Origin: Deltaproteobacteria bacterium
Lineage (GTDB): Bacteria > Desulfobacterota > Desulfobacteria > Desulfobacterales > C00003060
Length of the DNA: 33,372 bases
Direction of reading: 5' to 3'
NCBI GenBank assembly: GCA_019309815.1
Contig: JAFDFO010000001.1
Span: 1 to 33,372 of the forward strand
A program made the translations under genes and the position numbers. The notes under the pieces are model-generated. The model was not told the DNA's origin and searched no databases. It saw nothing but the letters and a program-made list of their open reading frames with translations. Shown here piece by piece: positions 27,384-30,841 of the stretch (the first letter of the stretch is position 1; the number at the start of each line of letters is the position of its first letter).

Positions 27384-29900
27384 ATGTCCCGTCAATCTTT
27401 GGAAGAGATATTACCTTTGGTCCAGAACCCCAGCCATTATCTGGGCACAGAGATCAATGCGCTCAAAAAGGACCCGGGGACAATCAGGCTACGGTTTGCT
27501 CTCGCTTTCCCCGATCTATACGACATAGGGACGAGCCACGTTGGCATCCAGATCTTGTACCATATCCTCAACGCCCGGGAGGGGGTCGCAGCAGAAAGAG
27601 TTTTTGCACCGGGAAGAGACCTTGAGGCAAGGATGCGGGATGAAGGCTGCCCCATTTGTTCGCTTGAGAGCCGCACCCCTCTTTCAGCCTTTGATATCAT
27701 AGGGTTCAGCCTGCTGTATGAACTAAATTTTACAAACATTTTGACGATGTTAGACTTGTCCGGGGTGCCGTTTTATTCGCGGGATCGAGATGCATCGCAT
27801 CCTTTTATTATTGCCGGGGGCCCATGCACCTTCAATCCGGAACCGCTTGCCGACTTCTTCGATGCTATGGTCATCGGAGATGGCGAGGAGGTGGCAATTG
27901 AGCTTGCTCAAGCCTGGCTGGAATCAAAGGATGCCGGAGACGACCGCGAGGGGACCCTCAAGAGGTGGTCAAAACTGCAGGGGGTCTACGTGCCGTCGTT
28001 CTTTGAAGCAGATGCGGACCCTGAAGGCTTCCAGACTCTAAAGCCTCGTTTTCCAGAGTACGGGACCGTGCATAAGGCCGTAGTCAATGACCTGAACCAG
28101 TCTCCTTATCCCGATTGTCCGGTGGTACCTTTTGGAAAACCCGTTCACGATCGGCTGAGTCTTGAGATTTCGCGCGGTTGCACCAGGGGGTGCCGGTTCT
28201 GTCAGGCCGGGATGATCTATCGCCCCGTGCGGGAAAGGGCGCCCGACACGGTTCTCTCCTTGGCGGAACGTGCCCTGGCGAACACGGGCTACGGAAACCT
28301 CTCACTCCTCTCGCTAAGTACCGGTGATTACTGTGCAATCCACACGCTTATGGAGGGCCTGATGGACCGGTGCGCGCCAGAGAGAATCGCGGTGTCCCTC
28401 CCGTCCCTTCGGGTTGGAAGTCTCACCGAGTCGCTTATGACCCAGATCAAGCGGGTCAGAAAAACGGGGTTCACAATAGCCCCGGAGGCCGGAAGCCAGC
28501 GACTCCGCGAAGTGATCAACAAGAATATTAGCGAGCAGGACCTGGAAGAGACGGTTCAGAACGCTTTTGGCTTGGGATGGCAGCTGATCAAGCTCTACTT
28601 TATGATCGGTTTGCCTACGGAAACAGAAGCAGATTTGGATGCGATTGTTGAATTGGTGAAGCGACTCCAAAAGGTTCGTGGCCGGAACGGACGCAATAGG
28701 CAGATTACCGTGAGCGTCTCCACCTTTATTCCAAAGGCTCACACCCCTTTCCAGTGGTGTTCCCAAATGTCGGTCGATGAGAGCCGGGACAAGATCCACA
28801 TGCTCCGAAGCGAGTTGAGGGGCGGTCGCCTTCGCTTCAAGTGGCAGAACCCCGAGATGAGTCTTCTTGAGGGACTGTGGGCGCGAGGTGACAGAAGATT
28901 GAGTCGGCTGTTGGTCAAGGCCTATGAGGCGGGCTGCCGTTTTGACGGATGGAGCGATCACTTTCAGTATAAACGATGGAAAGAGGCCATTGAAGCGTGC
29001 GGCGTGGATGTGGACTTCTACACGACGCGGTCAAGGGATCTTTCGGAACCCCTTCCCTGGGACCATATTAACTCCGGGGTGTCCAAAGAGTTTCTCAAGC
29101 AGGAGTGGGGAAGGGCCTTGGATCGGCAGGAGACTCCGGATTGCCGGCATGGGGACTGCCACCTGTGCGGCCTCTGCGACTTTGACGTACTTAAACCCGT
29201 GGTATTTGAGACGCATGAGGCGGTCCAAGCAGGTCGTGAGGTTCGGCGTAGTGAAGAAGAGGGCCCTTACAAGAAGCTTCGGGTTTCTTACGCCAAGCGC
29301 GGACCTGCCCGTTACTTCGGACACCTGGAACTTGTTAATATCTTCGTCCGGGCCTTGCGGCGAGCGGGGATTCCCTTGCGATTCTCGATGGGGTTTCATC
29401 CGGCCCCAAAGATTTCCTTCGAATGTGCCCTTCCTGTGGGGACCGAGAGCCTGGAAGAGCACTTCACGATCCAGGTCCCCCTGCGTGTTTCACGTGAAAC
29501 AATCCTGGAGCGGGTAGGCCCGCAGCTCCCAGAGGGACTCACCTTTTCGGCGTGCAAAGCGGTAGATCGGTCTCCTGCGGAGGCAGGGCCAAGACGCTTT
29601 CACTACACGGTGACTTTGAAAGAAGGGGCTTTTTCGGAGAGCAAGCTTAGTGAATTTTTGAAAAAAACCGAATGGCCGTTCACGCGGACGAACCGGAAAG
29701 GCCGGTCCAGGACCATAGATCTCAGGCCCGTCGTGAAGGAGCTGAATCTCCCGTCCGTGGACAGAGCTGACATGATCCTTGAGGAAAGCGATGGTTACAG
29801 TGTCCGGCCAACAGATGTGCTTGGTTCTGTCTTTGGCCTGTCTGAAGAAGCCTTGAAGCCGGTCAGCATCATAAAAAGCCCTGCTTCTAAGGATGATTGA
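27384..29900 (+). CDS. B12-binding/radical SAM protein fused to DUF2344 (TIGR03960 + TIGR03936-like)
   Basis: LSLEISRGCTRGCRFCQAGMIYRPVRER (CX3CX2C), FTIAPEAGSQRLREVINKNI; C-terminal RVSYAKRGPARYFGHLELVNIFVRALRRAGIPLRFSMGFHPAPKISFECALPVGTES (DUF2344). Confidence 0.92.
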   Translation: MSRQSLEEILPLVQNPSHYLGTEINALKKDPGTIRLRFALAFPDLYDIGTSHVGIQILYHILNAREGVAAERVFAPGRDLEARMRDEGCPICSLESRTPLSAFDIIGFSLLYELNFTNILTMLDLSGVPFYSRDRDASHPFIIAGGPCTFNPEPLADFFDAMVIGDGEEVAIELAQAWLESKDAGDDREGTLKRWSKLQGVYVPSFFEADADPEGFQTLKPRFPEYGTVHKAVVNDLNQSPYPDCPVVPFGKPVHDRLSLEISRGCTRGCRFCQAGMIYRPVRERAPDTVLSLAERALANTGYGNLSLLSLSTGDYCAIHTLMEGLMDRCAPERIAVSLPSLRVGSLTESLMTQIKRVRKTGFTIAPEAGSQRLREVINKNISEQDLEETVQNAFGLGWQLIKLYFMIGLPTETEADLDAIVELVKRLQKVRGRNGRNRQITVSVSTFIPKAHTPFQWCSQMSVDESRDKIHMLRSELRGGRLRFKWQNPEMSLLEGLWARGDRRLSRLLVKAYEAGCRFDGWSDHFQYKRWKEAIEACGVDVDFYTTRSRDLSEPLPWDHINSGVSKEFLKQEWGRALDRQETPDCRHGDCHLCGLCDFDVLKPVVFETHEAVQAGREVRRSEEEGPYKKLRVSYAKRGPARYFGHLELVNIFVRALRRAGIPLRFSMGFHPAPKISFECALPVGTESLEEHFTIQVPLRVSRETILERVGPQLPEGLTFSACKAVDRSPAEAGPRRFHYTVTLKEGAFSESKLSEFLKKTEWPFTRTNRKGRSRTIDLRPVVKELNLPSVDRADMILEESDGYSVRPTDVLGSVFGLSEEALKPVSIIKSPASKDD
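29486..29501. promoter_or_regulatory. parS-consensus centromere site (TGTTTCACGTGAAACA, perfect palindrome)
   Basis: Exact 16-bp palindrome inside the radical SAM/DUF2344 gene (codons R-V-S-R-E-T). Confidence 0.93.
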
Positions 29901-30085
29901 ACTCCGATAGCGTGAGCATGGCGGGTCCTGCGGGGAAACATTGGACCGCAACAGCCGAGCTCTAGTCCGATCGAAAATGCCGTGACATGAGTCTGTTATT
30001 TCTACTCCAGGTATATCAAAGACGATCACAAGTGTCTTCTAGAGCGGTTGTGAAAAATATGTTCCGTTTTGAACCATTTGTGAGG

Positions 30086-30310
30086 AGCTGGCAGGGGGTA
30101 TCTCTTTTGGAAGTCAGGTCACCGAATATTTCCTGACAGGTACCACGACGGCACGGATCTTCTACACAGCCTTGACCCATGTACAAACACGCTACCCAGC
30201 GTGTAAGGGGTGCTGCCGTGTGCCTGGCCTGTAGCGTTCCGTACATGTTGCCTCCGATGAGCGGAGAGGGGAATTGACCTGATTCAAAAAGAGATACCCC
30301 CTGCCAGCCT
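30086..30310. other. Structured intergenic inverted-repeat element (candidate ncRNA or nonautonomous mobile element)
   Basis: Terminal arms 30086-30121 and 30275-30310 pair over GCTGGCAGGGGGTATCTCTTTT (22 bp perfect) plus TCAGGTCA; internal hairpins ACACGCT-ACCC-AGCGTGT and CTCCG-ATGAG-CGGAG; pairs ACGGCA/TGCCGT and CATGTAC/GTACATG. Confidence 0.8.
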
Positions 30311-30385
30311 AACAAGACTGCCGTGAAAGGAATATATTTTTGACAATCACTATATGCCTGGACTCTGCCATGGGGGAGTTGGACA

Positions 30386-30841
30386 ATGAAGGGAATAATG
30401 TTGAAATGTATGTGGTCAGCAATCCTTGTGTTGCTCTTCTCCTTTCCGAAGGCAGTGGTTGTGAGTGCTTCGGAGGTTGGCAAAATCACGTTGTCCTACG
30501 ATATTATTGAGAAGGACACCGCTGACACTGGCCATACATTGACTCTCACCGTCCACCTCAAGATCAAGAATATCGGGGGAAGTGCCATCGACAACGTCAC
30601 TGCACATGTGGCCGGAACCGAAGGAATGGCCGTGGGTCTCGACAATATCTTCTTCGGACTAATAGAAAACGGCCAAACGCTGACAAGCGAACAATTTGAC
30701 CTTGTTGTTGAAACAGGCAATTCGCAGGACGTTCAACCGGGAATTGTGTGGGAAGTTGAATACTGGACGAGATATGGGACCGGTGTTGTCGAGCAGGTCT
30801 CGACCCCTTTTGGACAGAGTTCCTGCAAGCCCCTTCGTTGA
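30386..30841 (+). CDS. Secreted hypothetical protein (signal peptide, beta-rich)
   Basis: 151 aa; MKGIMLKCMWSAILVLLFSFPKAVVVSASE signal peptide, then LTVHLKIKNIGGSAIDNVTAHV, QTLTSEQFDLVVE. Confidence 0.7.
   Translation: MKGIMLKCMWSAILVLLFSFPKAVVVSASEVGKITLSYDIIEKDTADTGHTLTLTVHLKIKNIGGSAIDNVTAHVAGTEGMAVGLDNIFFGLIENGQTLTSEQFDLVVETGNSQDVQPGIVWEVEYWTRYGTGVVEQVSTPFGQSSCKPLR

What the first reader, a model, noticed from the sequence alone, without database searches (positions are those of the whole stretch)
30086..30310. 225-bp highly structured intergenic element with a 22-bp perfect closing stem and possible pseudoknot
The outer arms pair over 22 perfect bp (GCTGGCAGGGGGTATCTCTTTT) plus a further 8 bp. 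Inside are two clean hairpins (30187-30204, 30252-30266) and the helix CAGG.ACCAC.ACGGCA with TGCCGT-GTG..TGG-CCTG (30137-30153 / 30214-30229). CATGTAC (30178-30184) and GTACATG (30241-30247) cross that helix, which would make a pseudoknot. This is too organised for a simple terminator. It ends about 75 bp upstream of a secreted protein of unknown function and could be a novel structured RNA, a cis-regulatory leader or a nonautonomous mobile element.
Basis: seen in the sequence. Interest (0 to 1): 0.75.

Follow-up and report, generated by a model that had tools for sequence, protein, structure and literature searches.

The report
Miniature transposon with long hairpin
The hairpin-rich stretch is the middle of a 311-bp transposon remnant that makes no protein and sits in about 15 copies in this genome; it is not a regulatory RNA, but the same middle piece also turns up between quite different transposon ends in related bacteria, which is mildly unusual.

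Summary
The folding described is really in the sequence: a 22-bp perfect closing stem, an 8-bp extension, two hairpins, and a crossing 7-bp complement. The marked stretch, however, is only the centre of a larger element, window 30042-30352 (311 bp). That element has 24-bp terminal inverted repeats (consensus GAGCGGTTGTCAAAAATATGTTCC) and a TA on both sides. About 15 copies or partial copies lie dispersed in the same genome, mostly 90-98% identical. Shorter deletion derivatives with the same ends also occur, and 14 of 16 complete elements are flanked TA/TA.

Across species the long palindromic arms covary. The pseudoknot and most interior helices hold only in this genome and its nearest relative, and no neighbouring gene or orientation is conserved.

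The unexpected part is the ~225-bp core. In congeners (uncultured Desulfobacterales) it is conserved at roughly 70-80% but sits between unrelated ends: two IS630-type, one IS1182-type, one unassigned. Within one genome (G008), cores mostly 83-93% identical carry three end types. The core therefore behaves as a module that changes transposon ends.

The parts
30042..30352 (+). whole element: 311-bp MITE
   Evidence: common borders of aligned copies; flanking DNA unrelated
30040..30041 (.). TA, left target-site copy
   Evidence: 14 of 16 complete elements in the genome are flanked TA/TA
30353..30354 (.). TA, right target-site copy
   Evidence: as above
30042..30065 (+). left terminal inverted repeat GAGCGGTTGTGAAAAATATGTTCC
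   Evidence: 21 + 21 matches to its inner 20 bases in the genome with up to 3 mismatches, none to the reversed control
30329..30352 (-). right terminal inverted repeat, read on - strand TAGTGATTGTCAAAAATATATTCC
30066..30086 (+). left subterminal spacer
   Evidence: swapped with the right spacer in copies L064 and L068, i.e. the middle is inverted there
30309..30328 (+). right subterminal spacer
   Evidence: most variable part among G000 copies, 0.237 pairwise difference
30087..30121 (+). left arm of the inner palindrome (22 bp perfect, then 8 bp at 30114-30121)
   Evidence: 92.5% and 96% of cells paired across species, nine of 22 pairs changed on both sides
30275..30308 (+). right arm of the inner palindrome
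30122..30274 (+). interior of the core, conserved in sequence between species but without a well supported common fold

Best explanation
The element is a MITE: a nonautonomous DNA transposon of 311 bp whose 24-bp ends are recognised in trans by an IS630 (Tc1/mariner)-type transposase, which inserts it at TA. Shown: dispersed copies, sharp common borders, terminal inverted repeats, TA on both sides, no conserved coding frame, and internal-deletion derivatives that keep the ends. Inferred: mobilisation by an IS630 transposase. The strong folding follows from nested inverted repeats (terminal repeats plus a second, ~34-bp inner palindrome), not from a demonstrated RNA fold. The inner ~225-bp core is a module that has been re-flanked several times by ends of different insertion-sequence families. 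The route, inferred from chimaeric elements in G006, is probably one MITE inserting into or recombining with another and then losing ends.
For: 14 long matches in the own genome, most at 90-98% identity. Common borders and unrelated flanks. TA/TA at 14 of 16 complete elements. Short derivatives with identical ends. Mostly intergenic sites with differing neighbours and gene directions. An IS630 transposase (PF13358) with type-B ends on both sides in G010, and another with a type-A-like end on one side in G015. An IS1182-like broken transposase with type-C ends on both sides in G001. Core between four end types, three of them within one supported G008 clade.
Against: No IS630 transposase was found in the own genome (the assembly is incomplete) and no autonomous element with both type-A ends was found. 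No empty orthologous site could be shown for the window copy. Some end-type assignments are uncertain.
Confidence: 0.9

Rival explanations
1. A functional structured RNA (leader, riboswitch-like or sRNA), with or without the proposed pseudoknot, that happens to be multicopy.
For: Strong folding; interior conserved between species while spacer DNA is not; hairpin 30187-30204 is 89% paired with two pairs changed on both sides.
Against: Both strands fold nearly equally; pseudoknot and most interior helices are not kept outside G000/G021; top interior couplings do not form helices; no Rfam match; no constant gene context.
Confidence: 0.05
2. The ~225-bp core is itself a mobile unit that inserted repeatedly into the middle of other MITEs; the inner arms are its terminal repeats.
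For: Core borders are sharp and the same in all end types, and spacers differ.
Against: No clear solo core outside outer ends among the copies examined; core-less short elements have varying junctions and often keep arm sequence, so they look like deletions, not empty sites; no transposase with such ends was identified.
Confidence: 0.12
3. A transcription terminator or insulator between the two flanking + strand genes.
For: It lies in a 485-bp gap between two + strand genes.
Against: No terminator-like site in 29900-30450, and other copies lie in other gene contexts.
Confidence: 0.03

Closest known systems
RUP of Streptococcus pneumoniae, a MITE attributed to IS630-Spn1 (PMC2229807)
   Same: Small, dispersed, intergenic, with terminal inverted repeats and insertion at TA; strong stem-loop folding; an IS630-type transposase in trans is the proposed driver.
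   Different: RUP is 107 bp (PMC2229807); this one is 311 bp, has a second long palindrome inside, and shares its core with elements that have other ends. Different host lineage.
Other bacterial MITEs: Correia/NEMIS, ERIC (PMC2229807)
   Same: Dispersed palindromic repeats with TA at the termini whose transcripts fold into long stem-loops.
   Different: Larger; no sequence relation tested; no evidence here of promoters, host-protein sites or processing.
TIMEs, Tn3-derived miniature elements that form mosaic nonautonomous transposons (PMC4133298)
   Same: Shuffling of noncoding transposon parts into mosaics.
   Different: There mosaics form with ends of one family (Tn3); here one core lies between ends of IS630, IS1182 and a further type.

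Membership tests
MITE (nonautonomous DNA transposon) | many dispersed near-identical copies | tested here: met
MITE (nonautonomous DNA transposon) | terminal inverted repeats at the common borders | tested here: met
MITE (nonautonomous DNA transposon) | target-site duplication | tested here: met
   TA/TA at 14 of 16 complete elements; TA is short, so chance matches exist for single copies but not for the set
MITE (nonautonomous DNA transposon) | no transposase gene inside | tested here: met
   311 bp; the one ORF across it runs on beyond the element, and indels in the core are not in multiples of three
IS630-derived MITE | insertion at TA | tested here: met
IS630-derived MITE | ends shared with an autonomous IS630 element | tested here: inconclusive
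   type-A-like end next to an IS630 transposase in G015 on one side only; none in the own genome
IS630-derived MITE | mobilised by an IS630 transposase | not testable with these tools
   needs an excision/insertion assay
structured RNA family | interior helices supported by compensatory changes | tested here: not met
   outer arms only, with weak support for one hairpin
structured RNA family | match to a described RNA family | tested here: not met
   Rfam 15: none at gathering score; best below it E 0.3, an animal miRNA family

The most novel reading that the evidence does not exclude
The ~225-bp core is a selected, transferable module (a DNA structure or RNA that helps the transposon it sits in), taken up independently by IS630-, IS1182- and other-ended elements and kept because it raises their spread.
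Probability: 0.15. Interest if true: 0.65.

Novelty: new variant of a known kind. Interest (0 to 1): 0.33.

Why it matters
As an element of this window it is an ordinary MITE, and a useful warning that strong folding and a drawable pseudoknot come free with nested inverted repeats. The wider point is that one noncoding core occurs between ends of different insertion-sequence families in related genomes. That makes it a natural case for studying how nonautonomous transposons change the transposase they depend on, and whether something in the core is selected.

Tried and rejected
Structured RNA: rejected on covariation, both-strand folding and Rfam. Terminator: none found. Plasmid origin: no match in PLSDB. 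Viral contigs: two pattern matches, not followed up. Empty orthologous site of the window copy: not found; only the upstream gene aligned in congeners. Core derived from the inside of an IS630 or IS1182 element: no meaningful match in six transposase loci. Core-less short elements as pre-insertion sites: rejected, since junctions vary and often retain arm sequence. Parent of type-D ends: one single-ended locus checked, no transposase. A first attempt at pair counting used a wrong register for two helices and was redone. In alignment A1 the left arms of four G000 copies were cut short by my choice of coordinates, so arm counts for those rows are missing. Pattern hits in Rhodococcus, Bradyrhizobium and Anaerolineae are probably chance and were not examined.

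Full report
OBSERVATION. The stretch folds far better than dinucleotide shuffles on the + strand (z -7.0) and almost as well on the - strand (z -5.7). Folding of both strands is what a DNA palindrome gives and is no evidence for an RNA. Rfam has no match.

WHAT IT IS. A search of the window's own genome found 14 long matches, most at 90-98% identity. Aligning them with their flanks moved the borders outward: the copies share TA|GAGCGGTTGTCAAAAATATGTTCC on one side and the inverted counterpart on the other, and the DNA outside is unrelated. In the window the element is 30042-30352, with TA at 30040-30041 and 30353-30354. A count over fetched loci gave 16 complete elements, ten of 305-311 bp and six of 82-103 bp; 14 have TA on both sides. 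The short ones keep the ends and lose the middle, with differing junctions that often retain part of one inner arm. Several copies end contigs, as repeats do in a fragmented assembly. Neighbouring genes and their directions differ from copy to copy. This is a MITE.

WHICH TRANSPOSASE. TA duplication points to the IS630 (Tc1/mariner) superfamily; a published parallel is RUP with IS630-Spn1 (PMC2229807). In congeners, two IS630 transposase loci carry related ends. G010 has an intact gene with type-B ends on both sides. G015 has a gene with a type-A-like end on one side only. The own genome has no recognisable IS630 transposase, but its assembly is incomplete. The step from type-A ends to movement by an IS630 transposase is therefore inference.

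STRUCTURE ACROSS SPECIES. A sequence-only model of the core found it in congeners: 71 matches in G008, 29 in G006, 28 in G015, 26 in G001, 15 in G000 and 12 in G021, fragments included; single copies in G018 and G020; and one clear match in another family of the order, G026. Named records are uncultured Desulfobacterales and Deltaproteobacteria MAGs, among them CP070769. Column covariation in 65 copies supports the outer palindrome; the best interior couplings do not line up as helices. Outside G000/G021 the pseudoknot falls to 54%. Covariation of the arms need not mean an RNA: recombination between arms, visible as inverted middles in L064 and L068, would homogenise them too.

THE UNEXPECTED PART. 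In other species the core has different ends: type A, GAGCGGTTGTCAAAAATATGTTCC; type B, GGAGAGCATCTAATAGTTTGCAT; type C, CGGGCTGTTGCCCAAA with apparent 4-bp duplications such as TTAA and TTGA in several but not all copies; type D, GAGACCTTTGCATAAC. Type C flanks a broken IS1182-like transposase (DUF772 plus DDE domains) in G001. Type-C elements also carry other palindromic interiors, shared between species. Among type-C elements of different species the ends and the core are alike, but the DNA between them is no more alike than shuffled sequence (identity 0.717 against 0.707 shuffled; core 0.806 against 0.717). On the core tree, nine cores of G008, mostly 83-93% identical across end types, form one clade (support 100/96) and carry B, C and D ends; over all labels the tree needs 17 changes of end label. 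G006 has elements with a type-B end, then a type-C end, then the core, then the other type-B end. That is direct evidence of chimaeras. Ends were assigned by pattern matching with mismatches; some rows are unassigned or doubtful (L061 'AC', L189 'A'), and part of the 17 changes may be assignment error. The G008 case does not depend on those rows.

HOW IT MOST LIKELY WORKS. A transposase acting in trans on the outer 24-bp ends cuts and inserts the element at TA (inferred). The inner palindrome makes the element prone to inversion of its middle and to internal deletion (both seen as products). Re-flanking of the core by new ends probably happens when one MITE inserts into another and outer or inner ends are then lost (inferred from G006). 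Why this core has been kept and re-used is not known. Within G000 its interior is not less variable than the ends, so selection on it is not shown.

COMPARISON AND NOVELTY. Dispersed TA-flanked palindromic MITEs are a known kind (PMC2229807), and mosaics of miniature elements are known for Tn3 relatives (PMC4133298). Four literature searches, covering open-licence papers only, gave no title or abstract reporting one MITE core shared by IS630-, IS1182- and other-ended elements. I therefore file it as a new variant of a known kind, of modest interest; the window copy taken alone is an ordinary new member.

Noticed in passing
L277, L280, L283, L284, L286; L269, L285: Type-C (IS1182-like) ends also enclose at least two other palindromic interiors that recur between species (one beginning CCCTTTTCGCTYG, one with GCCGCGATAATAT). 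Whether these also change ends was not tested.
   Followed up: no
L207, L214 (next to the core copies): A further short palindromic repeat, GCCCTGTTAGATA...TATCTAACAGGGC, lies against or inside the core-bearing elements in G006 and G015, like a nested small element.
   Followed up: no
G008 (about 90 pattern matches): GAGACCTTTGCATAAC ends are very abundant and often stand at contig ends, so this genome seems heavily loaded with type-D elements; their transposase was not found.
   Followed up: partly
G118:C243:466-1363: A tandem array with a period of about 72 bp gave 13 weak matches to part of the right arm; probably chance similarity, but a regular array.
   Followed up: no
window 30386-30841: The 151-aa protein with a signal-like start downstream of the element has no Pfam match, and the joined flanks found no match to it in congeners.
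   Followed up: partly
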